A model generated the notes under the pieces. That model made no database searches. It saw only the letters and a list, made by a program, of their open reading frames with translations, and was not told where the DNA came from. From positions 1 through 64,000 of the forward strand of contig JALHLU010000013.1 in assembly GCA_022844345.1 (NCBI GenBank): a DNA stretch of 64,000 bases. Direction: 5' to 3'. The stretch's first letter is position 1; every line of letters begins with the position of its first letter. Both the position numbers and the translations under genes were made by a program. Positions 1-59,121 of the stretch are shown here, one piece after another. The DNA comes from Hyphomonadaceae bacterium (GTDB lineage Bacteria > Pseudomonadota > Alphaproteobacteria > Caulobacterales > Hyphomonadaceae).

Positions 1-214
1 TTACGAAATTACACATGTAATCTAGTCTGGTGTTTCGTGCTGACGCCGCGCGTGTCAGATTCTGCCAACAAATCCTCGCTCTAGAGGCGATTGGCGCGCG
101 CATGTGTTTCCTGCTGTTTCCTCAAATCACCCCGAGTTCCCCGCTCCGGTGTTTACTATGTGCTTCCAAGTCTGACCCTCGCATTAGTTCACGACGGGCA
201 AACGGAGGCTCGCC
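1..214 (+). repeat. att-int leader, copy A
   Basis: Positions 1-7 are TTACGAA, the reverse complement of the tRNA-Thr(CGU) anticodon loop. From there to the GTG start at 215 the sequence runs parallel to 58908-59121 at a constant offset of 58,907 bases. Long matched stretches include 50-67 and 115-133. The block also contains GACCCTCGCATTA at 174-186, a near copy of the tRNA core itself. A GGAGG at 204-208 serves the integrase gene. The rest of this attachment site lies before base 1. Confidence 0.8.
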
Positions 215-1465
215 GTGAAGCTTACAAAACGGAGCATCGAAGCACTCGCGGCTCCCAAGCAAGCGCGCATCGTGTTCGACGAAGACCTGCCTGGTTTCGG
301 CGTTCGGATCGCTCCTTCAGGCCGGAAGACTTTCGTCGTTCAGTATCGCGTAGGCGGCGGCCGGGGAGGCCGGCAGCGTCGCGTCTCTGTCGGAGTCTTC
401 GGCACCATCACGCCAGAGGATGCGCGTACTGAGGCTAAGAAGATCCTGGCGCGTGCGCACCTGGGAGACGACTTCGCGGACCAGCGCGACAAAACCCGCA
501 ACTCGAAAACCGTAAGCGAACTCATCGACGAGTGGTCCAAGGGCGGAGTGCTCATCAACCGGCGCACCGGCACGAGACGACAGCAGGTCAATATCAACAA
601 TGATATAGCGCTCGCCAACCATCACCTGAAGCCTCTGATCGGCAACCGCACGCTGGAAAGTCTTTCCAAAGGTGACATCCAGTTGCTGCGCAACCGCATC
701 GCTGGCGGTGACACCAAGACAACCCGCAAAGGCCGTCGACGCGGCAAGATCAATGTCACCGGCGGGGAGGGAACGGCGACAAGAACGATTCGGCTGTTTT
801 CGTCGATCCTCTCCTATGCGGTCGATATGGAACTGATCCCGCGAAATCCTGCCCTTGGCATCAAGCTGCCGCCGGGCGGCCAGCGGCATCGCTACCTGTC
901 TGCGGATGAGCTTCGCCGGTTGGGAGAGGTTCTTGAAAGACCAGCATCCACAACGACCGCGGGTGCTGCCGCCATCATCCTGCGCCTGCTCATCCTTACC
1001 GGTGCGCGTCGCGGTGAGATCGAAGGGTTGAAATGGTCAGAAGTCGATTTCAACTTCGGCATGCTGCGCAAGAAGACCAGCAAGACAGGAGCCAAGGTGA
1101 TACCGCTGGCCCGGGTTGCGGTCGAGATTCTCGAAGAGCAAAGGCGCTGGATAGACCGCAGCCAGACCTGGGTTTTTCCCGCGCACCGAGGCGAAGGACA
1201 CTTCGATGGTCTAAACAAGGAATGGCATCGCATCCGCAAACTTGCGGGGGTCGAAGACGTTCGCATTCACGACCTGCGGCATACCTTTGCAAGCGTGGGT
1301 GCAGGCGGCGGTGTGGGACTGCCGCTCATTGGCGGAATTCTCGGGCATCGCCAAGCATCGACGACGCAACGCTATGCGCACCTGGCCGATGGGCCTCTGC
1401 GTACGGCGGCTGATTTGATTGGTAGTGAGTTGGCAGCGGCGCTGGCCGGGGCCTCGTTCCGGTAA
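215..1465 (+). CDS. Tyrosine recombinase/integrase (island 1)
   Basis: A 416-residue phage-type integrase with a short N-terminal DUF4102-like arm-binding domain (about 1-85), a core-binding domain (about 95-215) and a catalytic domain (about 225-400). Catalytic residues visible are R265 in TGARRGE, H352 and R355 in HDLRH, H378 in GHRQ and the nucleophile Y387 in TQRYAH. It starts at GTG with GGAGG seven bases upstream. It would cut and join the element at the adjacent tRNA-Thr(CGU) 3' half. It is very similar along its whole length to the integrase at 59122-60405, with the same DUF4102-TGGEGTATRTIR-TGARRGE architecture, which points to related elements sharing one attachment site. All catalytic residues are intact. 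Confidence 0.96.
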   Translation: MKLTKRSIEALAAPKQARIVFDEDLPGFGVRIAPSGRKTFVVQYRVGGGRGGRQRRVSVGVFGTITPEDARTEAKKILARAHLGDDFADQRDKTRNSKTVSELIDEWSKGGVLINRRTGTRRQQVNINNDIALANHHLKPLIGNRTLESLSKGDIQLLRNRIAGGDTKTTRKGRRRGKINVTGGEGTATRTIRLFSSILSYAVDMELIPRNPALGIKLPPGGQRHRYLSADELRRLGEVLERPASTTTAGAAAIILRLLILTGARRGEIEGLKWSEVDFNFGMLRKKTSKTGAKVIPLARVAVEILEEQRRWIDRSQTWVFPAHRGEGHFDGLNKEWHRIRKLAGVEDVRIHDLRHTFASVGAGGGVGLPLIGGILGHRQASTTQRYAHLADGPLRTAADLIGSELAAALAGASFR

Positions 1466-1643
1466 GGATACGCAGCCGCCTTGAGCGTGAACAAGCGCTG
1501 GATGCGGCCCCCGTGGTTTGCAGCGGAATCAATCATGCAACGCAGCCTTCGGCGCCCTGACCCAACACCGGTTTACGGTCCGCCCTCCCGAAACGCTCCG
1601 TCAGCGAATTTCCACCACGTCAGTGGACGCCGACTGAGCGGCG

Positions 1644-2816
1644 CTATGGATCATCGCTCGGAGCCGCATCACTTAGAAGGTCAAGGTATCGACGATAGGA
1701 GTAGACGCGTCCACGCTTCTTGCCAGTGACCTCGACTACCATGCCCAGCTTCACCAGCTGATCGAGCGCGGCATTGACCGTAGGCAGAGCCAGCCCACTT
1801 TTCTTCCGCGCTCCTGGCGCTGTCACGTAGGGGCTGGTTTGTAGCAATTCATGTACGCGGAGAACGGAGTTTGGTGCGGCGGCTTCTGCGCCAATCCGCT
1901 GGCGGTCTTCTTGAAACAGCGCAACGATTTTGTTGGCAGTTTGGAACGCCTGGTTTGCGGTGTCGGCGATGCCCTCCAGAAAGAACTCGAGCCAAGCCTC
2001 CCATGCGCCTCGCTCACGTACCTCTTGGAGGAGGCGATAGTATGTCTCGCGGTGCTGCTTGAAGTAGAGGCTGAGGTAAAGAAGCGGCGCACGCAGGACA
2101 CCGCGCTCGCAAAGGTACAGCGTGATCAAAAGACGACCCAAGCGTCCGTTGCCGTCGAGAAATGGGTGGATGGTCTCGAATTGCACGTGTGCGAGGCCAG
2201 CCTTGATCAAGGGCGGTAGGCGATCCTTCTTATCATGCAGAAATGACTCTAAATCATGGAGCGCAGGCATTACCTCTTGCGGAGGGGGCGGGACGAATAT
2301 CGCATTGCCGGGCCGTGTGCCCCCGATCCAATTTTGCGACGTGCGAAAAGCGCCTGGCTGTTTAGTCATGCCCCGACCGCTCGCCATCAGCTTCTCATGC
2401 ATCTCGCGTATCAGCCTTAGCGAGAGGGGCAGCTTGGACAGGCGAGCGAGTCCATGCTCCATCGCCGCGATGTAGTTGGAAACCTCGCGGATATCGTCGA
2501 CCGGTGCGCCAGCTGCCGCGTCGCTTTCGAAGCGCAGGAGATCGTTCAGCGTGGACTGCGTCCCTTCGATCTGAGACGACAAGACCGCCTCTTTTCGCAC
2601 GTACATGTAGAGGAAGAGGCTAGTGTCCGGGACAAGCGCCGTGATGCCGTCTAATCGCCCCACCGCTCGATCGGCTTCGCTGAGAGGCCCCAAGAGTGAC
2701 AGGAGGTCGAGTTGCGGGACAGGCGGCAAGGGCGGCGGCACAAATGCCCGGACCTTTTCGCCAGCGACAGCAGTGCCGACATAGCGCCCCAGGCGCGGAT
2801 TTGCGGTCTTTGGCAC
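1644..2816 (-). CDS. Fic-family protein (AMP-transferase type) with C-terminal winged helix
   Basis: A 390-residue Fic enzyme, expected to transfer AMP or a related group to a target protein. An N-terminal Fic_N region is followed by the core motif HPFLDGNGRLGR at 217-228, which has the catalytic His and both arginines. The inhibitory helix motif SxxxEG is present at 80-85 (E84), so this is an autoinhibited Fic with the inhibitory helix N-terminal to the core. The last 80 or so residues look like a winged helix, a layout often linked to autoregulation. Repeated CTAATAA elements just upstream fit that. No antitoxin gene is adjacent. Whether it acts as a toxin or a housekeeping modifier cannot be told from sequence. 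Confidence 0.93.
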   Translation of the reverse strand: MPKTANPRLGRYVGTAVAGEKVRAFVPPPLPPVPQLDLLSLLGPLSEADRAVGRLDGITALVPDTSLFLYMYVRKEAVLSSQIEGTQSTLNDLLRFESDAAAGAPVDDIREVSNYIAAMEHGLARLSKLPLSLRLIREMHEKLMASGRGMTKQPGAFRTSQNWIGGTRPGNAIFVPPPPQEVMPALHDLESFLHDKKDRLPPLIKAGLAHVQFETIHPFLDGNGRLGRLLITLYLCERGVLRAPLLYLSLYFKQHRETYYRLLQEVRERGAWEAWLEFFLEGIADTANQAFQTANKIVALFQEDRQRIGAEAAAPNSVLRVHELLQTSPYVTAPGARKKSGLALPTVNAALDQLVKLGMVVEVTGKKRGRVYSYRRYLDLLSDAAPSDDP

Positions 2817-2825
2817 GCCGGCTCC

Positions 2826-2864
2826 CTAATAATCGGAGCCTTATTAGCGCGATTCACTAATAAA
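2826..2864. promoter_or_regulatory. Candidate operator repeats upstream of fic
   Basis: CTAATAA at 2826-2832 and its exact inverse TTATTAG at 2841-2847 form a dyad. A third copy, CACTAATAA, follows at 2856-2864. They begin ten bases before the Fic start codon, where they would overlap the promoter or the ribosome site. The natural reader is the winged helix of the Fic protein itself; this is inference. Confidence 0.5.
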
Positions 2865-2865
2865 G

Positions 2866-2886
2866 AAAAAGGCCATTGGCCTTTTT
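2866..2886. terminator. Hairpin with A/T tracts, likely bidirectional terminator
   Basis: AAAAAGGCC (2866-2874) and GGCCTTTTT (2878-2886) are perfect inverse copies around a three-base loop, giving a GC stem with a T run on either strand. It sits upstream of fic, so it more likely ends or insulates transcription from the right than ends fic. No complete gene reads into it from the left. Confidence 0.45.
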
Positions 2887-2976
2887 AGCGAGAATACTTG
2901 GTAAAGCTAGCGTTCTTAGGCCCGGGAGGCCGTCACACGCCTGACTGCTAGGTCACCATTTTCGAGTTTTCCTTCG

Positions 2977-3069
2977 TCAGGCAAAGGCCTGCAGTCTTTC
3001 TAGCTCCGCATCGGTGTTAGCATTGCTGAAGACGTCCCGCGTGGTCGATGGCCACTCCACTACTGACAT
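2977..3069 (-). CDS. Possible 30-residue ORF or gene remnant
   Basis: A short open frame lies downstream of the EAL-domain gene on the same strand. It begins ATG directly after GGAGGA and ends in the acidic helix-like stretch NTDAELERLQAFA. The Shine-Dalgarno sequence touches the start codon, which is too close for normal initiation. It may be the tail of a lost gene. I recognise no family. Confidence 0.2.
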   Translation of the reverse strand: MSVVEWPSTTRDVFSNANTDAELERLQAFA

Positions 3070-3089
3070 TCCTCCGTTAGTGAAAGACC

Positions 3090-5429
3090 TCAACCTGTCT
3101 GACGGTTGCTGACGCCGGACACGTTTGGGCTTTGCATGAAAGCGAGGAAGTCGTCGACTACCAGCGGTTTGGCGATGAAATAGCCCTGTATCATGTCAGC
3201 GCCCATCGCGCGCAGGATCGCGAGGACGTCTGCAGTTTCGACACCCTCAGCCGTGAGTTTCATGCCGAGGCTATGCGCGAGATCGATCGTCGACTTGACG
3301 AGGAATGTGTCGCTGTTTCCGTTACCAAGGTTCTCGATGAAGACCTTGTCGATTTTCAGTTCTTCCGCCGGTATGGCGCGCAGATATGACAGCGAGGACA
3401 GGCCTGAGCCGTAGTCATCAATGGAAATTCCCACGCCTGCCTGCTTGAGCTCGTTCATCACGTCCAGCGCCTGCCTGGGATTGTCGATGACGGCTGTTTC
3501 AGTGATCTCGAAGCACAGCCGGGCGCCCGAACGTCGGACCTGGCGCAGGGCCCGCTCTGCGAACTGCTCGTTCGCGATGAGCCTGCCGGAGACATTCACA
3601 GACACCGTGACGTCGTGGCCGGCCTTCCGGAAGATCCGCTGATCTGCGATCGCACGATCGATGACCCAGTCGGTGAGCGGGCGGATGTGGCCGGTTTCCT
3701 CGGCCATCCCTATGAAGGCGTCGGGCCGGACCATGCCGCGATGAGGATGGCGCCAGCGAAGCAGCGCTTCGGCGGAATTCACCCGATCTTGTCGTAGATC
3801 GAGTTTTGGCTGGTGCGCCAGGAACAGCTCGCCGTTCGACAGCCCGTGGATCATCGAGCTCATCAGCGACAGCGTCGTCGCCGGATCTCCATATGCGCCC
3901 GGGTCGAACCAAGCGGTGATTCTGCGCTGTGCGCGGGCCTGTTCGCCGGCGACTTCGGCGCGCTCCAGCAAGTCGAGATGCGCTTGCGCATCCTCGGCAT
4001 CGCAGGCAAGCCCGGCCGTCACCATAACGTCGATGCGGTCGGCATCCAGCGTCACCGGACTGGAGACCGCCTGTGCAGTTGCGCGAATCGTGGCTTCGGC
4101 CTCATCTCGATTCTCAGCGGTGAATACGATGGCGATCGTGCCGGTGGTTGCCCGGCCTACGTGAAGACCTTCGCGGGAATGTGAGGCGCGCGTCGCAACT
4201 TCCGCGACCAGACGCGAAAACAGACCGTGCCCGATTGCGCCGCGTATCTGGTCGAAGCGATTGATGCTGATGATCGCGCCGAAGATTTGGCTGGGTGATG
4301 TCCTGCTGCGCAGCGTCGTCAGTGTTTCTTGCAGGGCGCGCAGGTTTGGCAGGCCGGTTTCCTGATCGTGCAGCGCCAGATGCAGGATGCGTTGTTCGCG
4401 CGCTGCGATCTCGGAAGACATGACGTTGAAGTTCGCCGCCAGTTCCGAAATTTCGTTGCGGCCTCTGACCGCGACTTCGGCAACTTCGCCGCGAGTCAGT
4501 TGGCCGGCAGCGGCGCGAAGGCCGGAAATCGGCCCGGTCACGCGGCGCGAGACAAACCAGCTGCCAAGGACAAGCGCAACAAGGCCGATCGCGCCGATCA
4601 GCGCGATGGTCGTGAGCATGTCGCGGTAGTGCGCCTGGTTCATGGTGAGCGAGTATTCGAGCAGGAGGGCTGCAGAGGCTCCATCGGCAAACACCTGCAG
4701 GGTCTTGATGCCGCCGATCGAGTTGCGTTCGGGCATGTTGATCAGCAAGTCGCCGTCCGTCTCGACGACGCGATCTGCGAGTTCATCGTCGGCAATGCCG
4801 ATCGCACGTCCGGGCCTGTCTTCGAGCGCGGCCCAGGGTTGACCCTCGCGCCTCAGGTAGAGATGCGCGGACAAAGGTATGGCTGAAAGCTGTTCGAGCT
4901 CTCCGAGCTGTTCGCCGCCCAGCCGTCGGCCAAACACGACCCAGCCAATCAGTGTGGGCGCGCGGACGGGCGCGGACACAGCCTGGTAGGTCGTATCTCC
5001 CAGAGTGAGAACGCCCGAGGCGTCAGGGTTGGCGGTGACAGCAGCGAGGAGGGTAGGGTCCGCACGCCCAGTCAGAGTGTCATCAAGCGAGATGGCCGAT
5101 CCATCCGGGCGAATGATCAGCGCAGTGTCAAAGCCAAATCGCGACTGGATGTTGTCGAGCGCGGAAAGCATGGTCTCGTCGTCGCCCGTGGCGACGGCCT
5201 CGCGGAATCCGAAGTCCCTCGACAGTATTTCGGCTGTTTGCTGCAACTGGTCGGCGCGCAGTTTCCAGATACGGTCGAACACGGCGGAGGAAGAGGTCAT
5301 CTCCGCACGCACGGCCTGCCTGGAATTGGCTTCGACAGCTACCCAGACCGCGCCCGCAATCAGCAACAGCACCGCGCCAAACAGTGCGGCATAGATCAAT
5401 GTTAGTTCGGAAGACAAGCGTTTGAACAT
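3090..5429 (-). CDS. Membrane c-di-GMP phosphodiesterase: dCache-HAMP-GGDEF(degenerate)-EAL
   Basis: A 779-residue protein with a transmembrane helix near 9-31, a periplasmic double-Cache-like sensor to about 270, a second helix near 273-295 and a HAMP linker. These are followed by a GGDEF domain without the GG(D/E)EF motif and an EAL domain. The EAL domain keeps the catalytic set: EALLRW, NVS, the Glu of EITET, IDDYGSG, LKIDK and AEGVET. It should therefore hydrolyse c-di-GMP, with the degenerate GGDEF perhaps sensing GTP. It lies 18 bases behind the cupredoxin-like gene and is almost certainly in the same operon. Periplasmic signals connected with the redox proteins next door could control it; that is inference. 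Confidence 0.93.
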   Translation of the reverse strand: MFKRLSSELTLIYAALFGAVLLLIAGAVWVAVEANSRQAVRAEMTSSSAVFDRIWKLRADQLQQTAEILSRDFGFREAVATGDDETMLSALDNIQSRFGFDTALIIRPDGSAISLDDTLTGRADPTLLAAVTANPDASGVLTLGDTTYQAVSAPVRAPTLIGWVVFGRRLGGEQLGELEQLSAIPLSAHLYLRREGQPWAALEDRPGRAIGIADDELADRVVETDGDLLINMPERNSIGGIKTLQVFADGASAALLLEYSLTMNQAHYRDMLTTIALIGAIGLVALVLGSWFVSRRVTGPISGLRAAAGQLTRGEVAEVAVRGRNEISELAANFNVMSSEIAAREQRILHLALHDQETGLPNLRALQETLTTLRSRTSPSQIFGAIISINRFDQIRGAIGHGLFSRLVAEVATRASHSREGLHVGRATTGTIAIVFTAENRDEAEATIRATAQAVSSPVTLDADRIDVMVTAGLACDAEDAQAHLDLLERAEVAGEQARAQRRITAWFDPGAYGDPATTLSLMSSMIHGLSNGELFLAHQPKLDLRQDRVNSAEALLRWRHPHRGMVRPDAFIGMAEETGHIRPLTDWVIDRAIADQRIFRKAGHDVTVSVNVSGRLIANEQFAERALRQVRRSGARLCFEITETAVIDNPRQALDVMNELKQAGVGISIDDYGSGLSSLSYLRAIPAEELKIDKVFIENLGNGNSDTFLVKSTIDLAHSLGMKLTAEGVETADVLAILRAMGADMIQGYFIAKPLVVDDFLAFMQSPNVSGVSNRQTG

Positions 5430-5447
5430 GCGCGTGGACCGCTCATT

Positions 5448-6056
5448 CTACGTTGGCGGCACGATGTCGAGCACGACGGTGACTGTGGTAGTCCCTCCAG
5501 AAACGGTCACGGCTTGCGTGACGGTCTGGTCCTTTGAGGTGGCGTAAGGGTGCCAGACGTCGATGCGCTGGCTGCCCTCGGGTGCCGCGGTCAGTCTGGC
5601 CACACCATCGGCGCCGGACTTCGCAGCCCAAGGCGTGTCGACCACACGGATGAAGGCCACCATCTGATCGTGGATGTTGCAACCAAGTGCTGCGACCCCT
5701 GCCGTCTTGAACGTGACGACGCGTTTCTCCTCGCGGCCATAAAGTTCGAGCTCGAACCTGTTGCCCTTCGAAAACGAATAGACGTGATGCCGGAACTTAT
5801 CGAGGTTGGGAAACTCAACGGTCGATCCCACCGGCGCCACGAGCACGAACGGCGCGAACTGCTTGGACGTTTGCGCCATCCTGAGGCCATCGACTGGTGC
5901 GGGCTTCGGATCACCTGGCTTTGCGGGGATCAATGCCACTGCGTCGGACAGGGGCTTTCCGTCGGGTGTTGTCACGCGGACGACAATGTCTCCGGCCCAG
6001 GCGTGCGCCGTAAACAGAAGCGAAATCATCGCGAGATGAGGGAACCTGCCAAGCAT
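5448..6056 (-). CDS. Exported cupredoxin-like protein ('methylamine utilization protein' family)
   Basis: A 202-residue protein with a signal peptide ending near AHAWA. An upstream in-frame start at 6146 exists, but this start has a purine-rich GGAAGACGG before it and places the signal peptide at the N-terminus. The mature part has a beta-rich N-terminal segment and a plastocyanin-like region. That region keeps HHVYSFS, a central stretch ending in LGCNIHDQM and a final strand, so His, Cys, His and Met ligands for a type-1-like copper site are plausible. The family name is historical; no methylamine genes are nearby. It is divergent from the DUF3034 gene across 142 bases and is followed by the EAL gene. 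Confidence 0.8.
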   Translation of the reverse strand: MLGRFPHLAMISLLFTAHAWAGDIVVRVTTPDGKPLSDAVALIPAKPGDPKPAPVDGLRMAQTSKQFAPFVLVAPVGSTVEFPNLDKFRHHVYSFSKGNRFELELYGREEKRVVTFKTAGVAALGCNIHDQMVAFIRVVDTPWAAKSGADGVARLTAAPEGSQRIDVWHPYATSKDQTVTQAVTVSGGTTTVTVVLDIVPPT

Positions 6057-6198
6057 CCGTCTTCCGTAACATTGCAGACTGAAGATGCCGTAAAGCTGCA
6101 CAGGGCCAACCCCGACTGTTTGGCGCTGATTAAACCTTCGATGCAAAGTTGCCGCTTCGAACTCGCACAGGTGCGAGCATGTTGCGGTGGGATTCTGA

Positions 6199-7089: not shown

Positions 7090-7091
7090 TC

Positions 7092-51687: not shown

Positions 51688-52236
51688 TCACGTAGTCTGA
51701 TCGCTGCAATCTTCAGGCGTGCAAACCGCACTTTCATTGGTGGTCGCCGATCCACCTGAGAGATTGGTCTCTCCGACAAGCGCCATGATATCAGCAGCGA
51801 GGCGCAAATCCGGAATATGGCCAAACACGTTTCTGCGGAGCCGGCCGCTGCGGTCGAACAACAATGTCGTGGGCGTTCCGCGCATCGCGTAGGCTTGCAT
51901 GGTCACGGGAATGGGATCGCAGGGATTGGCTTCGTCGACCCCGACCGGAATAGTGATCCGGTACTCGTGAAGGAATGCTGCGAGTGAAGTCGGCGTCATC
52001 GCTTCGTGGTGCTCGAACACCGTATGCAACCCCACGACGGCGAGATCGCCCTCTGAAAAAGCCTCCCGAACACGCAGCGCCTGTGGAAGGCTTTCACTGA
52101 CACAGCCAGGACACAGCATCTGGAAAGCGCTCACCATTACGACCTTGCCACGCAGGGCGCCAAGGGACAGGGGTGCTTCGGAATTGAACCAGCGAGAGAC
52201 GCGCCACTCAGGGCTGGCAGGGTAAATGTCTTTCAT
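51688..52236 (-). CDS. TlpA/AhpC-like redoxin
   Basis: A 182-residue thioredoxin-fold protein with a CPGC redox pair (FQMLCPGCVSES) and a cis-Pro loop (RGTPTTLLFD). A second Cys pair near the end, CTPEDC, is unusual and may act as a resolving pair. There is no signal peptide, so it is cytoplasmic. It is the last gene of the MarR-controlled redox operon. AAGGAAG precedes ATG 52236. Confidence 0.88.
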   Translation of the reverse strand: MKDIYPASPEWRVSRWFNSEAPLSLGALRGKVVMVSAFQMLCPGCVSESLPQALRVREAFSEGDLAVVGLHTVFEHHEAMTPTSLAAFLHEYRITIPVGVDEANPCDPIPVTMQAYAMRGTPTTLLFDRSGRLRRNVFGHIPDLRLAADIMALVGETNLSGGSATTNESAVCTPEDCSDQTT

Positions 52237-52305
52237 CTTACTTCCTTGTGCAGACCGTCCGTCTGCCCGTGCGCCGCTTACTGGCGAGGCACGGGCAGGC
52301 AGCGG

Positions 52306-53082
52306 TTACTGGTTGGGTTTGCCGGGCAGGCTGAGATCGCCCGAAGCAACCTCAAAGACATTCGCGACGCACAGCAGCGGCGCGTGTGCGCTTGCGCTGA
52401 CGCGAAGACCCGCCGTCACACCATCAAAGCGGGCCGCCTCGACGATGCCGATATCATCGAAAGGCACGCGGACTTCCACCGTGTCTCGATCAAGTTGAGG
52501 CTGCCAACCGGGACTGTCGATGTGGATCGGAACGCCTGGCCACGTCTTGGGCAGACGCGGCTTTCGGCCCTCCGGAATATCGATCACCTTGAGTGCGCCC
52601 TTGCCGCACACATCGTCCGGTCCCAGCACGACCCAATGCATGTGCCAAACGCCGCCATCGTTGGTGCGGTCGCCATCATGCGTCTCATCGAAGAGGGGGG
52701 TATCGTCGAAATCCGGGTGGGATGTCACGGCAGCCGCCAGAATGCCTGCATCCCGATCGAATCCGACCTCAAAGGGATCGATCGTGGTCGGCCAGACATA
52801 CGAGAACACCTCGCTGCCAGCGAACTGCCCGGTCGGAATCGGTCTGGTCGCGCCTGCCTTGCCCGACACAGCCATGTGGAACACCGCAGTGTTCCCGTCC
52901 GTCGTTATCTTGGCGTGCACGATGTCGAACGGGGCCAGGACAGCGGGGGAGGCCGGGTTACTGATGCCACCCGTATGGGAGTGAGAGGGCTGGGCCGAGC
53001 CGGTCTGAGCGGAAGGCAGTTGCGAGCAAGCCGCCAAGGAGATCAGCGCAAGCGCCACCGCCTGAATGGGTTTGCTGTTCAT
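52306..53082 (-). CDS. Lipoprotein of unknown function
   Basis: A 258-residue protein with a lipobox (LISLAAC) after a short signal peptide and then a His/Asp-rich body. The segments DIVHAKITTDG, SHPDFDDTP, DETHDGDRTNDGG and WHMHWVVLG could bind a metal. I recognise no named family. ATG 53082 overlaps the stop of the small thioredoxin-fold gene; a longer frame to 53295 overlaps that gene and is rejected. It sits inside the redox operon. Confidence 0.75.
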   Translation of the reverse strand: MNSKPIQAVALALISLAACSQLPSAQTGSAQPSHSHTGGISNPASPAVLAPFDIVHAKITTDGNTAVFHMAVSGKAGATRPIPTGQFAGSEVFSYVWPTTIDPFEVGFDRDAGILAAAVTSHPDFDDTPLFDETHDGDRTNDGGVWHMHWVVLGPDDVCGKGALKVIDIPEGRKPRLPKTWPGVPIHIDSPGWQPQLDRDTVEVRVPFDDIGIVEAARFDGVTAGLRVSASAHAPLLCVANVFEVASGDLSLPGKPNQ

Positions 53083-53327
53083 CAGGCAGCTCCTTTGACA
53101 TCGGCCATCGAGGCCCCGAAGTTTATGTGGAAGGCTGTCCCATCGATCACGAAGGCGGGGACAGATTTGACGCCCAGCTTTTCGGCTTCTGCGATGCGTT
53201 GAGGCGCGGTTGCAAAATTGACGATCTCGACATCGTAGCGAGCGGGATCGAGTGAGCCGGCGAGAGCTTGCTCGGCGCTCATGCAGACGGTGCAACCGGC
53301 GTGGTAGAAGGTAGCTCCTGTTTTCAT
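53082..53327 (-). CDS. Small glutaredoxin/thioredoxin-fold protein
   Basis: An 81-residue protein with the redox pair HAGCTVCMSAE near residue 12 and a cis-Pro loop in KSVPAFVIDG. ATG 53327 has AGGAG at a good distance. It opens the operon with the lipoprotein and TlpA-like genes and is preceded by a copy of the MarR operator half site. A role in thiol or nitrosative stress is likely. Confidence 0.85.
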   Translation of the reverse strand: MKTGATFYHAGCTVCMSAEQALAGSLDPARYDVEIVNFATAPQRIAEAEKLGVKSVPAFVIDGTAFHINFGASMADVKGAA

Positions 53328-53343
53328 ATTAGGACTCCTATGT
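53327..53343. promoter_or_regulatory. Second candidate MarR operator
   Basis: TAGG-ACT-CCTATGT repeats the right half (CCTATGT) of the 53991 palindrome exactly and the inner four bases of its left half. It overlaps the ribosome site of the small redoxin gene. Confidence 0.55.
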
Positions 53344-53414
53344 ATTATGCGCATGGAAGCGATGCGCACGCTTGCTTGAGACAGCGTCTCAAATTCTTGT
53401 ACGGGCGATGAAGC

Positions 53415-53990
53415 TCAGGCGGCGTTGACCTCACGATGCTCCGGACAGTCGATCCGAAGATCGCCAGCCCCAAGAGCGACGTCCATCAACCTGCAGTGAT
53501 GCTGTGCGGACTTGCCCGGATGCGCATCCCGCGCGAAATGCCGACAGCTCAGGCACATGCGCTGGCGTGAGATCACACCTTGTGTCTGCAGGGCCAGTAT
53601 GGCTCGGGAAACGATCCCCAGCAGGTCGGCACGGTCGCTTTCGGAAAGAGCTTCAATCATCCCGCCGAAGCTCATCGGCCAGCGCCGCGCCAGCGCCTTG
53701 CCGGCGGGTGTCGCCCGCAAGAGCACGGCCCGCCCATCGGCTGGATCGGAAATCTTCTCAAGATACCCTTTGCGCTCCAATGCAGAGACTGCATCGCTCC
53801 CGGTCGGCTGACTGACGCCGATATGCGCAGACGCAAACGACAGGCGGACGCCCTTGGGGCGCGTCATCAACAGTCGGAGAATATCACCCTGCGTAGGCGT
53901 CAGGCCTTCAACCTCACCCGTGCGCCAGTCATCCTGCCGCGACACGGCCGCGAGACGCGCTAATCCTTCTGACAACTGATCGATCTTCAT
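53415..53990 (-). CDS. MarR-family regulator with C-terminal cysteine cluster
   Basis: A 191-residue regulator with a MarR winged helix (LSFASAHIGVSQPTGSDAVSALERKGYL, DPADGRAVLLRATPAG). It also has a C-terminal extension with CLSCRHF, HHCRLMD and DCPEH. Four Cys and nearby His could bind an iron-sulfur cluster or zinc and sense redox state or NO. It is divergent from nothing but leads the redox operon, and its operator (53991-54007) covers its own ribosome site. Most MarR proteins lack such a tail. Confidence 0.88.
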   Translation of the reverse strand: MKIDQLSEGLARLAAVSRQDDWRTGEVEGLTPTQGDILRLLMTRPKGVRLSFASAHIGVSQPTGSDAVSALERKGYLEKISDPADGRAVLLRATPAGKALARRWPMSFGGMIEALSESDRADLLGIVSRAILALQTQGVISRQRMCLSCRHFARDAHPGKSAQHHCRLMDVALGAGDLRIDCPEHREVNAA

Positions 53991-54007
53991 ACATAGGACA
54001 CCTATGT
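53991..54007. promoter_or_regulatory. Perfect 17-bp palindrome, likely MarR operator
   Basis: ACATAGG-ACA-CCTATGT is a perfect dyad directly abutting the marR start codon (ATG 53990 on the minus strand). Position and symmetry indicate autorepression. Confidence 0.75.
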
Positions 54008-54259
54008 AATATGTTTGAGTTCGTCAAGTCATCATGCGCGGGTAGGGGGCTCAATCATCATAGAGACAAAAAACGACAGGCGTGCAGCCTAGCCTGACTG
54101 GCGCTCTGTAGGATGCTTCGATGTGAGCAGCCCTGTCGTACGGGCGAGGCTTGGCTCGTCGCGGAGCGTGTGTACGCGATCACTGTAACGTCCGGCTTTC
54201 GCAACACCGTCTACGGTTTGGCGCCGGGCATAGGGTGTGCTGGGCAGTGGTTGGCGAGC

Positions 54260-54415
54260 CTAAAAGCTACCGACGGCGGCAACGAAGAGAAACACGAACA
54301 ACAGAGTCAGGAGCATCATGTTGACGAGCATGCGGACCATGCCGCGTTCGTTCTCGTTCTTGATTCCCATTGCATCGCAAACCGCATTCGAAGGTCGCAT
54401 CAGCAGCCGAAGCAT
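54260..54415 (-). CDS. 51-residue single-helix membrane protein, divergent from nsrR
   Basis: A small protein with a short cytoplasmic start (MLRLLMRPSNAVCDAMG), a charged NENERGMV segment and a C-terminal transmembrane helix (VNMMLLTLLFVFLFVAA). ATG 54415 has GAGGA eight bases upstream. Its divergent position opposite nsrR suggests an accessory to an NO-related or respiratory membrane complex. I know no named family. Confidence 0.5.
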   Translation of the reverse strand: MLRLLMRPSNAVCDAMGIKNENERGMVRMLVNMMLLTLLFVFLFVAAVGSF

Positions 54416-54485
54416 CGCCAGTTCCTCGCTTATCGCCAGACGGCGCAACTTGTCGCCGTCCCAAACCTTGCACTTCTGCAGAATA

Positions 54486-54510
54486 AAAGCAATATATGGA
54501 ATACTGCTTT
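54486..54510. promoter_or_regulatory. Dyad upstream of nsrR, candidate NsrR operator
   Basis: AAAGCAATAT and ATACTGCTTT pair as a 9-of-10 inverted repeat around ATGGA, immediately before the AGGAG of nsrR. Size and AT-richness fit Rrf2 operators. It may also serve the divergent small gene. Confidence 0.55.
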
Positions 54511-54520
54511 AGGAGCGACC

Positions 54521-54958
54521 ATGCGCCTCAACCTCCAGTCGGACTACGCGCTCAGGATGCTTATGCACCTTGCGTCCAGTCCTGACCGCCTGGTCACGAT
54601 CGGTGAGGTCGCCGACCGGTTCCGGATTTCGCACAACCACCTGATGAAGGTCGCCTACTTGCTAGGAAAGGAGGGTCTGATCACGACGGTACGCGGGCGA
54701 TCCGGTGGACTGCGTCTGGCGGGGAGAGCAGAGAAAATCCAGGTCGGTGACGTCGTCCGACGGATGGAGGGTGACATCCACCTGGTCGAGTGTTTCGCCG
54801 CAGAGCCGGGCGGTTGCGCGATTGCAGGTGCGTGCAGGCTCAAAGGGGTGATGCACGAAGCAGTCGATGCATTCTTCAGCGTACTCGACCGGTACACGCT
54901 GGCAGACCTGGTCGCGAGTCCAAAACTTCGCGCACTGTTGAACAGCGAGGCCGCCTGA
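54521..54958 (+). CDS. nsrR: NsrR-type Rrf2 regulator, NO-responsive
   Basis: A 145-residue regulator with an Rrf2 winged helix (MRLNLQSDYALRMLMHLA, RISHNHLMKVAYLLGKEG). Its iron-sulfur Cys set is CFAAEPGGCAIAGAC, i.e. C-x7-C-x5-C as in NsrR. NO destroys the cluster and releases repression. It overlaps the trHb3 gene (TGATG), so the NO-binding globin is probably its main target. AGGAG precedes ATG 54521; longer frames reaching 54113 are rejected. Confidence 0.9.
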   Translation: MRLNLQSDYALRMLMHLASSPDRLVTIGEVADRFRISHNHLMKVAYLLGKEGLITTVRGRSGGLRLAGRAEKIQVGDVVRRMEGDIHLVECFAAEPGGCAIAGACRLKGVMHEAVDAFFSVLDRYTLADLVASPKLRALLNSEAA

Positions 54959-55407
54959 TGGGCGATCCTGTCCTTACAGCTCATGCGCGTCGCGCCGAGA
55001 TCCAGCGACGTGCGAATGTCATTGGTATCGACGAGGCCTACATATCGCTGTTGGTAGATGAGTTCTACAGGCGCATCCGCGCCGAGAAGACGCTTGGACC
55101 GATCTTCGAGGAAGCGATCGGAGACCGATGGAGCTATCATCTCCCGCGAATGAAGAGCTTCTGGGCTTCGGTCGCACTCAATGCGGGCACGTATTCTGGT
55201 CAGCCAGTTCCGGCCCATAAGAAGTTGAGCCAGGTCCAGCAGTCCCATTTCCAGACCTGGTTGGCGCTGTTTCGCCAGACCCTGCAAGACACCGCTCCCA
55301 CCCCCGAAGCGGTGGACTATTTCATGGAGCGCGCCAATCGGATTGCTGAAAGCCTGCAGCTCGCGATGTTCGGTTTTCCCGGCTTGCCGGTGAAACGACA
55401 AGGGTGA
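54958..55407 (+). CDS. Group III truncated haemoglobin
   Basis: A 149-residue cytosolic globin of the trHb3 class. It shows FYRRIRAEKTLGPIFEEAI in helix B-C, WSYHLPRMKSFWAS in helix E and the proximal histidine in QSHFQTWLALF. It can bind O2 or NO and often co-occurs with NsrR and nitrate respiration. It is translationally coupled to nsrR. Confidence 0.93.
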   Translation: MGDPVLTAHARRAEIQRRANVIGIDEAYISLLVDEFYRRIRAEKTLGPIFEEAIGDRWSYHLPRMKSFWASVALNAGTYSGQPVPAHKKLSQVQQSHFQTWLALFRQTLQDTAPTPEAVDYFMERANRIAESLQLAMFGFPGLPVKRQG

Positions 55408-55411
55408 CGAG

Positions 55412-55717
55412 ATGAATGATACTCCGACGCCGTCACCATATCGCTCAACGCCCGTGTTCGACGAAGCCACCTTGCCGGCCGCCCTTCGCCGCGAGCACCG
55501 CACCAAGCTGGGTGTGTGGGGTGTCATTCGTGTTTTGGACGGAGAGCTGAAGCTGACCTTCACGGAAACAGGCCACACCCAGATGCTCTCGCCCGGCGCG
55601 CCCGGTCTCATACTGCCGGACCAGCCGCATCTGGTCGAACCGCAAGGCCCGGTGCGAATGCAGGTCGATTTTTATCACGAATGTCCGAACTCGAACTCGC
55701 TGGCGACAAAGGGCTAG
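55412..55717 (+). CDS. DUF1971 (YeaR/TehB-like) cupin protein
   Basis: A 101-residue single-domain cupin with YRSTPVFDEATLPAALRREHRTKLGVWGVI and SPGAPGLILPDQPHLVEP. In Escherichia coli YeaR responds to nitrate and NO. It follows trHb3 by four bases in the NsrR operon. Confidence 0.9.
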   Translation: MNDTPTPSPYRSTPVFDEATLPAALRREHRTKLGVWGVIRVLDGELKLTFTETGHTQMLSPGAPGLILPDQPHLVEPQGPVRMQVDFYHECPNSNSLATKG

Positions 55718-56100
55718 AAGCCCCAAAGACCGAAAGCGGAGAGCGCTTGGCGCCATCATTCGCACGCGCTGGTCGAGTGGTGTCTCACCAGCGGTAGTGC
55801 GCTACCCGGAACTCCAACAAAACCAGCCTTGCGGATCGATGCCGTTGAGCCTGGGCGCCGCCAACAAGAAATACGTTGACGCTGCCCGCGATCAGTATCG
55901 GCGGACCAATCGCGACCTGCTGGCTCTCGAAAGGAATACCGGGAGCCGCACGCCCTACGTGACCAATGGGATGCTCATTGACGTTGCGTGGCGCGCAAGT
56001 CCTGAGGCAGCTCGCCTCGGGGCTGAATGACTGTTCGCGTACCGACTTTCGGCTAGATCGAGTCAACTGTCTGGTGCTCTGTCTTTGACTGGAGCCCCGC
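55718..56100. other. Gap of 383 bases with one doubtful frame
   Basis: A plus-strand frame from ATG 55839 to 56030 (64 codons, AANKKYVDAARDQY inside) has coding-like third positions but no clear ribosome site. Its antisense is also open, so neither is called. The end carries the ribosome site of the gene at 56101. Confidence 0.35.
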
Positions 56101-56331
56101 ATGCAGCACGTTCACGATCTCTGGTTCGAGCGCGTCGTGCGGCGACCCTCTTCGCGAGACTATCTCGAAGTCTCGCACGTGTTGGTTGTGGTCACCGATC
56201 TATTGACCGACCTCGACATCACAGACTCCGATGCGCTTGACTATCTCGAGACCGAGCTACGCCGGCAGCACGCCGAGGCGAACGATATCCGCTTCGTGCC
56301 GCTGGGGCGTGGGACGCGGAAAGGCCAGTGA
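56101..56331 (+). CDS. 76-residue protein of unknown function
   Basis: A small acidic-basic protein with a helical centre (VVVTDLLTDLDITDSDALDYLE). ATG 56101 follows GGAG and codon use is like its neighbours. I recognise no family. Confidence 0.55.
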   Translation: MQHVHDLWFERVVRRPSSRDYLEVSHVLVVVTDLLTDLDITDSDALDYLETELRRQHAEANDIRFVPLGRGTRKGQ

Positions 56332-56562
56332 GCTGATGCCGGGTCCGTAGCGCACGACCACGTCAAAGGCGCTAGGTCCTCGAACGCAGCCGGGTTGAGC
56401 TACCCGTTGCGGTGTCACAAAAGCCAAAAGACGTTCGGGTCACTGACGGGAGTCAGTTTGCGCCTTGATGGACAGCGCTGTCGAGCGAGGTATTGAGTTG
56501 TGGCTTGGTTGAGCGCAAGCCATCGGATCGTTCCCCCCACGTAAACAGAGGATGACACAGCG

Positions 56563-57270
56563 ATGCCGACAGGGATTGATCGCCGCACGGCGCTGGCTGC
56601 CACGCTAACCGCCGGTGTCATGCTCGCCGCTCAAGGATGCGCCACTGCGCAGCAGTCCGCAGCCGCTGTTTCGCTCAAAGGTTATCAGGCCAAACCGCTG
56701 CCATTCGACCCGAAAACAATCCCCGGCCTTTCAGAGCGCATCCTCGTCAGCCATCACGCCAACAACTATGTCGGCGCTGTTGCGCGCCTCGGTGCGATCG
56801 AAGCACAGGTCGCCCAACTGGATCCGACCGCGCCTGGCTTCATGTTCAACGGCCTCAAGCGCGAAGAACTGCTCGCGATGAACTCGATGATCCTGCACGA
56901 GCTCTACTTCGCTTCGCTTGGTAAGGGGGGCGGGAGGCCGGGACCTTCGCTTGCAACCCAGATCGAGAAGGATTTCGGCAGCCAGCAGAAATGGCGGGAC
57001 CAGTTCGTCGCGATGGGCAAGGCGCTGGGCGGCGGCTCGGGCTGGGTTCTACTGATGTGGTCGCCGCGGGCCGGCAAGCTCGTCAACCAGTGGGCGGCTG
57101 ACCATACGATGACGATTGCCGGCGGCAGTGGGCTGATCGCGCTCGACATGTACGAGCACGCCTACCACATGGATTTCGGTGCCAAGGCCGCCGCCTATGT
57201 CGATGCCTATATGGGCGCGCTTGACTGGACCAATGCGGACAAGGAGTTCGCCAGGGTCGGAGCGTCGTGA
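56563..57270 (+). CDS. Exported Fe/Mn superoxide dismutase-like protein
   Basis: A 235-residue protein with an N-terminal RRTALAA and a lipobox-like AAQGC, so it is probably exported, perhaps by Tat, and lipid-anchored. The dismutase fold has metal ligands in SHHANNYVG, the second His in ILHELYF, and Asp and His in LDMYEHAYHMDFG. The last motif is the usual DxWEHAYYxDY with Tyr for Trp and His for the second Tyr, so metal binding is likely but the outer sphere is altered. It overlaps the ChrA-like gene. Confidence 0.88.
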   Translation: MPTGIDRRTALAATLTAGVMLAAQGCATAQQSAAAVSLKGYQAKPLPFDPKTIPGLSERILVSHHANNYVGAVARLGAIEAQVAQLDPTAPGFMFNGLKREELLAMNSMILHELYFASLGKGGGRPGPSLATQIEKDFGSQQKWRDQFVAMGKALGGGSGWVLLMWSPRAGKLVNQWAADHTMTIAGGSGLIALDMYEHAYHMDFGAKAAAYVDAYMGALDWTNADKEFARVGAS

Positions 57271-58571
57271 CAGCCGAGGCGCGCCCGACCCTCAGCGAAC
57301 TGACGGCGGCCTCCTTCAAAGTGGGCTGCCTTGGCTTCGGCGGGCCGGCCGGCCAGATTGCCCTGATGCACCGCGTCTTCGTCGACGAGAAAAAGTGGAT
57401 CGACGAGGATCGCTACCTTCACGCCCTGAGCTACTGCACGCTGCTGCCGGGGCCAGAAGCACAACAGCTTGCGACCTATGTCGGCTGGCTGCTCCATGGC
57501 GTGAAGGGTGGGGTCATTGCTGGCTCCCTCTTCGTCCTGCCGGGGGCGCTGATTGTATTCGTGCTCTCGTGGGTCTACGTCACCGCTGGTCAACAGCCGC
57601 TCGTCGCAGCGGCATTCTTCGGCATCAAGGCGGCGGTGGTCGCCCTGGTGCTTGAGGCCATGATCAAGATCGGTAAGCGCGCGCTCAAGGGAGCGGGCGC
57701 CTGGCCGATCGCGATCGCGGCGTTTCTGGCGCTGCTCATCTGGAGCGCGCCGTTCCCGGTTGTCATTCTGGCCGCGGCAATCATTGGCGTCTTGCTCGCA
57801 CTGCGCGACCGCAAGCCCGCGACCGCGCCGGTTGAATCTGCAATCGAGTCCACGCCGTCAGCATGGCGCGCCATTGCGACCGCGGTGGCGTGGGGCGTCG
57901 CGTGGCTGGCGCCGCTTGGCATGTCACTACTTGCCCTTGGATCCGATCATGTGCTGACGCGGATAGGCCAGCTTTTCTCCACGCTCGCTGTCGTTACCTT
58001 CGGCGGGGCCTATGCGACCTTGGCCTACCTCAAGCAAGAAGCGGTCGAGGTGCATGGCTGGTTGACCGCCGGCCAGATGATCGACGGGCTGGGCCTAGCC
58101 GAAACAACTCCAGGCCCGCTCGTTCTGGTCAATGAGTTTGTCGGGTTTGTCGCTGGCTGGCAGGGCGGGGGAGGTCTTGCGCTGGCGACGCTTGGCGCCC
58201 TGATGGCGGCGTGGTGCACGTTCGCGCCGTCCTTCGTATGGATCTTTGCCGGTGCGCCATTCGCCGAGCGGCTGAGATCGAACCGCTTCGCCAACGCGGC
58301 GCTGAAGGGCATCACGGCTGCGGTCCTGGGCGTCATCGCCAACCTCGCGCTGTGGTTCGCGCTGCACGTCGTCTTCGGCACTGTTGACGCGCTGCATCTG
58401 CCGCTGGGAGCCGAACTGCCTCTACCCGTGTGGCCTTCATTTCAGATTGCCGCTGCTCTGATGTGCGTTATCGCGACGGTCGCGCTGCTCCGGTTCAAGA
58501 TCGGCGTGGTCTGGCTGATCCTTGCCTCGGCTGCATGCGGTGTTGCTCTACGGATCGCTAGGCTGGCTTAA
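57267..58571 (+). CDS. chrA: CHR-family chromate/anion transporter
   Basis: A 434-residue membrane protein with two homologous halves of about five helices each. It shows the CHR signatures FKVGCLGFGGPAGQIALMHR in the first half and VVTFGGAYATLAYL and GLAETTPGPLVLVNEFVGF in the second. It exports chromate or sulfate-like anions. GTG 57267 overlaps the dismutase stop by four bases. The pairing of dismutase and chromate transporter is common, since chromate reduction makes superoxide. Confidence 0.93.
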   Translation: MTAEARPTLSELTAASFKVGCLGFGGPAGQIALMHRVFVDEKKWIDEDRYLHALSYCTLLPGPEAQQLATYVGWLLHGVKGGVIAGSLFVLPGALIVFVLSWVYVTAGQQPLVAAAFFGIKAAVVALVLEAMIKIGKRALKGAGAWPIAIAAFLALLIWSAPFPVVILAAAIIGVLLALRDRKPATAPVESAIESTPSAWRAIATAVAWGVAWLAPLGMSLLALGSDHVLTRIGQLFSTLAVVTFGGAYATLAYLKQEAVEVHGWLTAGQMIDGLGLAETTPGPLVLVNEFVGFVAGWQGGGGLALATLGALMAAWCTFAPSFVWIFAGAPFAERLRSNRFANAALKGITAAVLGVIANLALWFALHVVFGTVDALHLPLGAELPLPVWPSFQIAAALMCVIATVALLRFKIGVVWLILASAACGVALRIARLA

Positions 58572-58869
58572 TCGGGTATCGCAGGTTCGAGTCGAATGCC
58601 GATCCTGTGCGCACGTTTCGTGCGGCAGTTGGATAGCGGTTCGCTGCGCTGATCTCAGGGTCGACGCATTACGCTGCAGAGCCCGAATTGTTTGTTGGTG
58701 TTTCCCATGTGCTTCCTGTCGAAGGTGCCGCTCGGTACAACTGCTTCAGCCGTTCGAGAATGTGAGATCAAACCGGAAGCTGAATGTCTGACCCGCGCAC
58801 ATGAAGTGGCATTGTTGAAGACGCTACAGCGCGCCAGCTAAAATTATGCAATAATATCAGCAACTTAGA
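58572..58869. other. Gap between chrA and the tRNA fragment
   Basis: No coding frame with a ribosome site, repeat or strong hairpin was recognised in these 298 bases, which form the right end of the first island. Confidence 0.4.
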
Positions 58870-58914
58870 TGGTGCTGCCTAGGTGACTTGAACACCTGAC
58901 CCCCGCATTACGAA
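58870..58914 (-). pseudogene. 3' half of tRNA-Thr(CGU), attachment-site core
   Basis: On the minus strand this reads anticodon loop TTCGTAA, variable part, T-arm AGGTG-TTCAAGT-CACCT, acceptor strand AGGCAGC and A-CCA. It lacks a matching 5' half: the bases beyond the loop do not form the anticodon stem or D arm. This is the typical remnant left by integration into a tRNA gene. A complete tRNA-Thr should be found at the far end of the second element, outside the window. Confidence 0.8.
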
Positions 58915-59121
58915 CGGAGCCGGGCGGTATCACCCGCTGTTTCCACAATATAGCACGCGTGTCAGATTCTGCCAGTAAATCCTCGCTCTACACGCGATTG
59001 GCGGACGAATGCGTTTCCTCGTGTTTCCTCAAATCACCCCGGATTCCCCGTCACGGTGCTTCCGATGTGCTTCCGGATTTGACCCCCGCATTGTTGTGCG
59101 GGTGTTGTTCGGAGCCGCCGC
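58908..59121 (+). repeat. att-int leader, copy B
   Basis: This is parallel to 1-214 with a fixed offset of 58,907 from the tRNA loop to the integrase start codon. It also carries an internal core copy, GACCCCCGCATT at 59081-59092, 183 bases after the same word in the tRNA fragment (58898-58909). Confidence 0.8.

What the first reader, a model, noticed from the sequence alone, without database searches (positions are those of the whole stretch)
1..59121. Tandem integrative elements at one tRNA-Thr(CGU) gene with perfectly conserved att-int spacing
The anticodon-loop word, the 214-base leader, the internal core copy and the integrase start codon all recur at one constant offset of 58,907. The tRNA 3' half at 58870-58914 is complete but has no 5' half. 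This fits accretion of two related islands and dates the nitrate-respiration block as mobile cargo.
Basis: partly seen in the sequence, partly recalled or inferred. Interest (0 to 1): 0.7.

Follow-up and report, generated by a model that had tools for sequence, protein, structure and literature searches.

The report
Two islands stacked at one tRNA
Two mobile DNA islands sit end to end at one threonine tRNA gene: a 59-kb one carrying nitrate-respiration genes and a larger one carrying metal-efflux and DNA-transfer genes. It is a clear new example of a known way bacteria collect genes.

Summary
The window starts at the end of contig C13, so nothing can be read left of base 1. Near the end of contig C6 of the same genome, a decayed tRNA-Thr 3' half (41/45) runs into the window's first 18 bases. 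C13 joins C14 by a 21-base overlap, and C14 carries the intact tRNA-Thr(CGT). A gene 8.6 kb along C6 also lies on the 3' side of this tRNA in three relatives, so C6 and C14 flank one locus. The array reads: chromosome, element 1 (58.9 kb, nitrate respiration, no conjugation genes found), element 2 (90.6 kb, trb-type conjugative element, metal efflux), intact tRNA.

Both elements carry a pair of GTG words, 11 b apart, near each end. One relative has three such elements in a row. In another, 8.9 kb of the nar block is 96.9% identical while a presumed chromosomal stretch is 66-83%, so the block moved recently.

This is tandem accretion, a known process. New details are words that differ between elements sharing one core, and a tRNA-like copy just before each alpha integrase. 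Open: the exact C6/C13 join, where C6 runs into an IS remnant.

The parts
1..58869 (.). Element 1 (58.9 kb): genomic island with its own integrase, nitrate-respiration cargo, no conjugation genes found
   Evidence: Bounded by the core at 1 and the tRNA 3' half at 58870; blastn found no other tRNA-Thr piece inside except 172-186; Pfam content
1..7 (+). Core heptamer TTACGAA (tRNA anticodon loop, minus strand); also the first bases of contig C13
1..214 (+). Left leader of element 1 (core to integrase start, 214 b)
   Evidence: 148/214 identical at offset 58907, next best 84/214; aligned with relatives
148..167 (+). Left arm-type word pair of element 1 (GGTGTTTACTATGTGCTTCC), a weak pair: 7/10 between its two halves
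173..185 (+). Internal core-like copy TGACCCTCGCATT, 42 b before the integrase start
   Evidence: 12/13 to the tRNA, maximum of 200 letter shuffles of this leader 10
215..1465 (+). Integrase of element 1 (Arm-DNA-bind_3 + Phage_integrase)
   Evidence: 72% identical to integrase 2
37849..48525 (+). Nitrate block: MFS transporter (NarK-like by position) 37849-40587, NarG 40586-44335, NarH 44332-45855, NarJ 45859-46542, NarI 47599-48525
   Evidence: window 40586-49469 is 96.9% identical in G012
58697..58716 (+). Right-end arm-type word pair of element 1 (GGTGTTTCCCATGTGCTTCC)
   Evidence: 18/20 to its own left word (and 18/20 to that of element 2), shuffled maximum 16
58870..58914 (-). tRNA-Thr(CGT) 3' half, attachment site between elements 1 and 2
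   Evidence: 45/45 to the intact tRNA on C14
58908..59121 (+). Left leader of element 2
59055..59074 (+). Left arm-type word pair of element 2 (GGTGCTTCCGATGTGCTTCC)
   Evidence: 20/20 with the right end of element 2 on C14
59080..59092 (+). Internal core-like copy TGACCCCCGCATT
   Evidence: 13/13
59122..60405 (+). Integrase of element 2
58870..64000 (.). Start of element 2 (continues to C13:98055 and C14:51445, 90,610 b in all; an outer-membrane efflux protein gene begins at 60904, an AcrB-type pump gene at 63617)

Best explanation
Two site-specific integrative elements accreted one after the other at the 3' half of one tRNA-Thr(CGT) gene. Each integrase recombines its attP core with the anticodon-loop core of the tRNA. 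The element's own copy of the 3' half restores the tRNA, and the old 3' half is pushed outward as a repeat. Element 1 (58.9 kb, left) carries the nitrate-respiration cluster and an integrase but no relaxase, coupling protein or secretion genes that I could find. Element 2 (90.6 kb, next to the intact tRNA) is a trb-type integrative and conjugative element with metal-efflux cargo. Shown from sequence: the order (apart from the C6/C13 join), the boundaries, matching end words, a shared flanking locus, and recent movement of the cargo. Inferred: that element 2 arrived later at the restored tRNA, that both integrases are active, and that element 1 leaves with or by help of element 2.
For: Integrases 72% identical, leader and starts at offset 58,907. 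Exact 45/45 tRNA 3' half between the elements; intact tRNA-Thr(CGT) at the far end of element 2. C13 and C14 overlap by 21 b with a frame open for 332 codons across the join. C6: tRNA 3' half 41/45 and the first 18 bases of element 1. A gene 8.6 kb along C6 also lies on the 3' side of this tRNA in G004, G008 and G010 and beside the attachment copy in G007. Right-end words match left words 20/20 in element 2 and 18/20 in element 1, against at most 13/20 in four presumed chromosomal flanks. Relaxase-like DUF3363 protein, TraG-type coupling protein, TrbE, TrbI, VirB8, a T2SSE-type ATPase and an excisionase-like HTH_17 protein in element 2; none of seven query proteins from element 2 (six for transfer or excision, one ParB) matches element 1 at E 1e-3. 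G006 has three attachment copies in a row, each followed by an integrase. Nar block: 96.9% over 8,884 b in G012 against 66-83% for a presumed chromosomal stretch; NarG in 2 of 15 genomes of the genus.
Against: The C6/C13 join is not closed: after 18 shared bases C6 runs into a truncated IS3-type fragment and then a 119-b repeat also found at the ends of C10 and C18. A further, IS-damaged element between C6 and C13 is therefore possible. The anchor gene was not found in 4 of 9 flank stretches compared (G002, G006, G009, G011), and its distance to the site differs (8.6 kb here, about 8 kb in G008, about 17 kb in G004 and G010). Only one presumed chromosomal stretch was compared with G012. No excision or transfer was seen; no reads are held. 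Of 51 ORFs picked for element 1, 50 were given to Pfam and 10 of these matched no family, so a divergent relaxase cannot be excluded.
Confidence: 0.92

Rival explanations
1. Three elements, not two: an IS-damaged remnant of another alpha-type element lies between the C6 attachment copy and element 1.
For: C6 carries 18 bases of an alpha-1 left end and then a truncated IS3-type OrfA, not the rest of element 1. G006 has two alpha-1 elements side by side.
Against: C13 starts exactly with the 18 bases shared with C6; there is no direct trace of a third element's right end. An insertion or an assembly fault at this point explains it as well.
Confidence: 0.3
2. One element that duplicated its left end (att, leader, integrase) internally, rather than two separately acquired elements.
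For: Same order and spacing at both places.
Against: The two copies are only 72% identical in protein; copy 2 is 99% identical to an integrase in another species (G006) and the first 18 kb of element 2 is 95% identical there, while copy 1 is 98% identical to the integrase of a different G006 element. Element 1 has its own right-end words.
Confidence: 0.03
3. The composite is no longer mobile: element 1 is a decayed relic locked in place because its outer attachment copy has four changes, one of them next to the core.
For: Outer 3' half 41/45, with changes in the T-arm and in the base before TTACGAA; the excisionase-like protein of element 2 has no match in element 1.
Against: Integrase 1 is full-length with the usual motifs (motif names recalled), and part of element 1's cargo is 96-97% identical in G012, so the cargo moved recently even if not by this integrase.
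Confidence: 0.35

Closest known systems
Tandem accretion of ICEs, IMEs and CIMEs by site-specific recombination (Pavlovic 2004 and Bellanger 2011, as cited in the review PMC5704250; passages of the review seen)
   Same: Elements sharing one attachment site stand end to end, separated by chimeric att copies, next to the intact target gene; non-conjugative member beside a conjugative one
   Different: Element 1 keeps an integrase, so it is not a CIME in the strict sense; relatives are Hyphomonadaceae; nitrate-respiration cargo
ICEMlSym(R7A) integrase IntS with an attP of five arm-type sites, consensus TGKTGGTATC (PMC11963761; passages seen)
   Same: Integrase gene directly behind attL, arm-type words in the leader resembling TGGTG + variable bases, excisionase gene close to the relaxase gene
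   Different: Here the words come as tandem pairs of 11-b period whose letters differ between elements that share one core
KplE1 intS: integrase promoter overlapping attL and repressed by the integrase (PMC2951348; passages seen)
   Same: att-leader-integrase order; the leader holds arm-type words and (by inference) the promoter
   Different: Host, tRNA and words; no regulation tested here
Composite genomic island CGI48 at tRNA-Trp in Shewanella (PMC8978831; abstract and outline seen)
   Same: Composite island at a tRNA gene
   Different: There one island is carried inside the other; here they are end to end

Membership tests
Integrative and conjugative element (element 2) | Integrase of its own plus flanking attachment copies | tested here: met
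Integrative and conjugative element (element 2) | Relaxase | tested here: met
   DUF3363 match at C14:46417-48483; that DUF3363 proteins are relaxases is recalled, not from a call
Integrative and conjugative element (element 2) | Coupling protein and type IV secretion genes | tested here: met
   T4SS-DNA_transf/TraG, CagE_TrbE_VirB, TrbI, VirB8, T2SSE-type ATPase
Integrative and conjugative element (element 2) | Excises as a circle and transfers | not testable with these tools
   no reads, no bench
CIME (element 1) | Has lost integration and transfer genes, keeps att sites | tested here: not met
   no match to the transfer proteins of element 2, but a full-length integrase is present
IME (element 1) | Own integrase | tested here: met
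IME (element 1) | Own relaxase or an oriT usable by a helper | tested here: inconclusive
   no relaxase family among 50 of the 51 ORFs picked (10 of the 50 matched nothing), nor by comparison with the element 2 relaxase; no shared stretch beyond 14-15 b with four stretches of element 2
Tandem accretion at a tRNA gene | Direct att repeats at both outer ends and between elements, intact target gene at one end | tested here: met
Tandem accretion at a tRNA gene | Unoccupied site in relatives with the flanks adjoining | tested here: inconclusive
   At the level of the locus it holds: G004 and G010 have tRNA and anchor gene about 17 kb apart and no integrase of this family at E 1e-100, G008 about 8 kb apart. 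A base-exact junction could not be compared, because the sequence next to the tRNA differs between species; other integrase families were not sought
tRNA-dependent integration (considered for the G002 locus only) | Host tRNA disrupted at a short core and replaced by a tRNA brought by the element | tested here: inconclusive
   G002:C8 has a whole tRNA-Thr and, 72 b away, a second partial copy that lacks the T-arm and 3' acceptor strand

The most novel reading that the evidence does not exclude
The tandem pair of GTG words is an address: elements that share exactly the same 45-b tRNA core but carry different words (alpha GTGCTTCCGAT, beta GTGATGCCCAG, gamma GTGCTACTCCG) keep their own ends apart inside one array, so each integrase excises its own element, while elements with like words (alpha-1 and alpha-2, as in this window) can leave together. 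In the alpha elements the word pair runs on, in line with the tRNA, into a core-like copy 42 b before the integrase gene, a 40-b tRNA-3'-half-like module that could serve as a second integrase site controlling the gene or be a fossil attachment site.
Probability: 0.25. Interest if true: 0.55.

Novelty: new member of a known kind. Interest (0 to 1): 0.35.

Why it matters
It shows how an ability as large as nitrate respiration can be added to a genome at one tRNA gene, beside a conjugative element that could carry it on. It also gives a natural series (two elements here, three in a row in G006, two in G002 if its contigs are linked as inferred) sharing one core sequence, in which the part played by arm-type words in keeping neighbours apart can be tested directly. 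For genome annotation, the word pair may give a simple mark for the far end of such islands, which is usually hard to place.

Tried and rejected
RNA hairpin at the internal core copy: element 2 folds well (z -3.0) but element 1, G002 and G006_B do not (z +0.6, -0.4, -0.4), so a conserved leader hairpin is rejected.

Shared origin of transfer: four stretches of element 2 near its transfer genes gave only 14-15-b matches in element 1 and G006_B and none in G006_A.

Word pair tracking the integrase N-terminal domain: 25 integrases with a readable word, 18 representatives; r 0.30 with the N-domain and 0.27 with the catalytic domain; partial correlation given the other 0.17 (p 0.05) and 0.11 (p 0.14). 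Too weak to claim. Two of the 27 (L100, L102) were left out because their words were unclear.

Decayed tRNA copies at right ends of alpha-1 elements: G006_A is above all 300 shuffles, but element 1 (16 of 300 shuffles as good) and G006_B (14 of 300) are not convincing.

The arm pair as a tRNA copy: words of elements at other tRNAs resemble tRNA-Thr about as well by eye (e.g. L098), so similarity of the arm pair alone is not taken as descent.

Left-flank nitroreductase-like gene as an empty-site probe: at E 1e-60 it occurs only in the own genome among 15, so a gene further out was used.

Solved structures: integrase 2 matches only distant recombinases (XerA, XerD, HP1 integrase and others) over its catalytic part; not used further.

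ARAGORN found no tRNA in the 12 distant loci or the 7; their tRNA 3' halves were recognised by eye.
Full report
What was claimed. Two related islands stand in tandem at one tRNA-Thr(CGU) gene, with the anticodon-loop word, leader, internal core copy and integrase start all repeated at offset 58,907.

Check of the observation. The window is contig C13, bases 1-64,000, of an 18-contig genome; C13 is 98,055 b long, so base 1 is a contig end. Bases 1-214 match 58908-59121 at 148 of 214 positions; the next best of all offsets gives 84. The two integrases (215-1465, 59122-60405) are 72% identical and both have Arm-DNA-bind_3 and Phage_integrase domains. The four other matches in this genome are far more distant (23-39%, all over only part of the protein). 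Bases 58870-58914 match the 3' half of the intact tRNA-Thr(CGT) on C14:51446-51521 at 45 of 45. A third copy, 41 of 45, lies at C6:694-738, near the end of C6. Blastn found no other tRNA-Thr piece inside element 1 apart from 172-186, in the leader.

Layout outside the window. The right end of C13 and left end of C14 share exactly 21 b, and one frame stays open for 332 codons across the join; that it is a TrbL-type gene is my recall. Element 2 so runs from C13:58870 to C14:51445, 90,610 b, and ends at the intact tRNA. C6, read in reverse, gives chromosome, decayed 3' half ending in TTACGAA, then the 11 bases that follow TTACGAA in the window (18 shared bases in all), and then an OrfA fragment of IS3 type (named by eye) and a 119-b repeat also at the ends of C10 and C18. 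Where exactly C6 meets C13 is therefore open. In relative G006 a full 3' half stands directly left of the matching left end of an alpha-1 element. G+C is 60.6% in element 1, 62.4% in element 2 and 64.8% in both flanks.

Flanks. In 8 of 15 genomes of the genus (own plus 7) the best match to the gene that flanks the tRNA here, a methyltransferase-like gene (named by eye), lies beside a tRNA-Thr(CGT); blastn of the tRNA against the other loci fetched found none. A gene at C6:9373-10551 has its counterpart on the 3' side of this tRNA in G004, G008 and G010 and beside the attachment copy in G007 (64-79% protein identity to the C6 copy). It was not seen in the stretches compared from G002, G006, G009 and G011 (33.9, 10.4, 4.5 and 5.4 kb), so 5 of 9 stretches share it. 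It lies 8.6 kb from the attachment copy here, 4.7 kb in G007, and about 8, 17 and 17 kb from the tRNA in G008, G004 and G010. The C6 and C14 flanks thus belong to one locus. G004 and G010 are alike for about 19 kb there and have no integrase of this family at E 1e-100: they look unoccupied, though no base-exact empty junction could be compared. G008 carries what looks by eye like an integrase remnant beside the tRNA.

Recurrence. Seven of 15 genomes of the genus, own included, have an integrase of this family at E 1e-100; 14 of 105 of the family at E 1e-110. Record titles name the relatives as Hyphomonadaceae MAGs. G006:C10 has attachment copies at 10395, 39370 and 55740 and an integrase behind each: three elements in a row, the right end of the third not seen. 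Its third is 95% identical to element 2 over the first 18 kb; element 1 matches the left 3.1 kb of G006_A at 90.6% and the right part of G006_B at 87.6% over 5.9 kb. Core-to-integrase spacing is 214 b in 5 of 6 alpha elements; the sixth holds an insertion of about 2.4 kb that looks like IS66 with an 8-b target repeat (family named by eye). It is 285 b in 3 of 3 beta elements (both by hand from coordinates).

End words. I took 27 integrase leaders: 9 of the 12 genus matches (three partial ones left out), the 7 family matches, and 11 of the 16 more distant loci (L103-L107 left out as weak or partial). In the 130 b before the integrase a tandem repeat of period 11 at 8 of 10 or better stands in 21 of 27, against a mean of 0.87 in dinucleotide shuffles (highest 3 of 60); period 10 also stands out (12 of 27). 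The misses are the three alpha-1 leaders (element 1 included, 7 of 10), L144 (7), L100 (6) and L102 (6). The words differ between elements. At the right ends, element 2 repeats its own left word 20 of 20, the G002 alpha word is found 20 of 20, and the beta word 20 of 20 at two right ends, all at -67 from the tRNA end. Pairing left and right ends in G002 crosses contigs and is inferred; in G006 a beta right end stands at the tRNA but no beta integrase was found. Element 1 has 18 of 20 at -173. Against a strict code: G006_B matches the element 2 word (19) better than its own (16, no better than the highest shuffle), and G006_A (14) is not above the shuffled maximum of 16. Four presumed chromosomal flanks reach at most 13 (plain letter shuffles). 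Arm-type sites of similar form are known from ICEMlSym(R7A) (consensus TGKTGGTATC, PMC11963761, passages). A classification of tyrosine recombinases puts integrases with a DUF4102 arm domain in an IntSXT subgroup (PMC8138268, passages); that PF13356 is the former DUF4102 is recalled, and subgroup membership was not tested.

Internal core copy. TGACCC(C/T)CGCATT stands 42 b before the integrase in 6 of 6 alpha leaders (12 or 13 of 13) and in none of the 21 others (at most 9). Because the six are orthologous this is one event, not six. With the arm pair it lines up along 39-40 b of the tRNA 3' half (scores 34-38, 0 of 300 shuffles as good in each of the four alpha leaders tested). Whether it works or is a fossil is not known; a conserved RNA hairpin is not supported.

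Cargo. Fifty of the 51 ORFs picked for element 1 were given to Pfam, and 10 matched no family (limit 1e-5 in the first four, 1e-3 in the last). The matches include NarG, NarH, NarJ, NarI, an MFS transporter beside them, molybdenum-cofactor proteins, NnrS, an Rrf2 and a Crp-type regulator, a ribonucleotide reductase, an ABC exporter and a chromate transporter. No relaxase, coupling protein or secretion family was among them, and seven proteins of element 2 (excisionase-like, relaxase, TraG, TrbE, TrbB, TrbI, ParB) have no match in element 1. NarG occurs in 16 of 105 genomes of the family and 2 of 15 of the genus. In the second, G012, the block 40586-49469 is 96.9% identical, and a further stretch (21840-27474) is 96.1% identical and lies beside an integrase related to integrase 2 (86% DNA identity), while one presumed chromosomal stretch gives four pieces of 66-83%. 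Element 1 cargo has thus moved recently and has been joined to more than one integrase type. Only that one comparator was used.

How it most likely works. The integrase cuts at the anticodon-loop core; each incoming element restores the tRNA with its own 3' half and pushes the old half outward. The order (decayed outermost copy, exact inner copy, intact tRNA) fits element 1 first and element 2 later at the restored tRNA, but decay of the outermost copy is expected under either order. Element 2 has all the classes of gene a conjugative element needs; in element 1 none was found, and it would need to leave in one piece with element 2 or by its help. None of this movement was observed.

Comparison. 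This is tandem accretion as reviewed in PMC5704250 (passages). Element 1 fails the strict CIME definition because it keeps an integrase; IME membership is undecided. Paper searches in the held library: tandem accretion, P4-type integrases and arm sites, Hyphomonadaceae and ICEs, nitrate respiration on mobile elements. No title or abstract start listed there describes this array or tandem words that differ between elements sharing a core; but the library lacks most subscription journals, and I read only passages of five papers and the abstract and outline of a sixth.

Verdict. The finding is right and the reading sound; it is a clean new case of a known process, with two details worth a bench test.

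Noticed in passing
L075 (G002:C8) 15093-15289, minus strand: A whole tRNA-Thr(CGT) is followed 72 b further by a second partial copy (94% over 49 b: 5' half and part of the anticodon arm, no T-arm or 3' acceptor strand). The native gene looks split and replaced by a whole copy, recalling tRNA-dependent lysogeny (PMC10865867, passages seen).
   Followed up: partly
window 1; also G001:C1 base 1 (L028): Contig C13 begins exactly at the first base of the core TTACGAA, and G001:C1 begins exactly at the tRNA 3' end. Contig breaks at these points could reflect mixed integrated and excised (or mixed strain) DNA in the sequenced samples.
   Followed up: no
L070 19540 - L071 1950 (G006:C10 about 39,540-41,950): IS66-like insertion with an 8-b target repeat inside the leader between att and integrase of a tandem element.
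   Followed up: partly
L149 (G075) and L101 (Aminobacter), left of the tRNA-Arg 3' half: Another element's word pair (GTGCTTCCAC..., GTGCTTCCG...) stands just left of the attachment copy, while the element to the right has a different word: likely further tandem arrays, at what looks by eye like a tRNA-Arg.
   Followed up: partly
window 14144-16975: 943-aa protein made largely of WD40 repeats, matching 52 Pfam families, on the island.
   Followed up: no
L081 (G012:C527) 1-6376: Element 1 cargo (21840-27474, 96.1%) lies directly behind an integrase of the element 2 type: cargo and integrase modules have been reshuffled.
   Followed up: partly
L018 (C6) 1-690: Truncated IS3-type OrfA fragment joined to the first 18 b of an alpha-1 left end, then a 119-b repeat shared with the ends of contigs C10 and C18.
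   Followed up: partly
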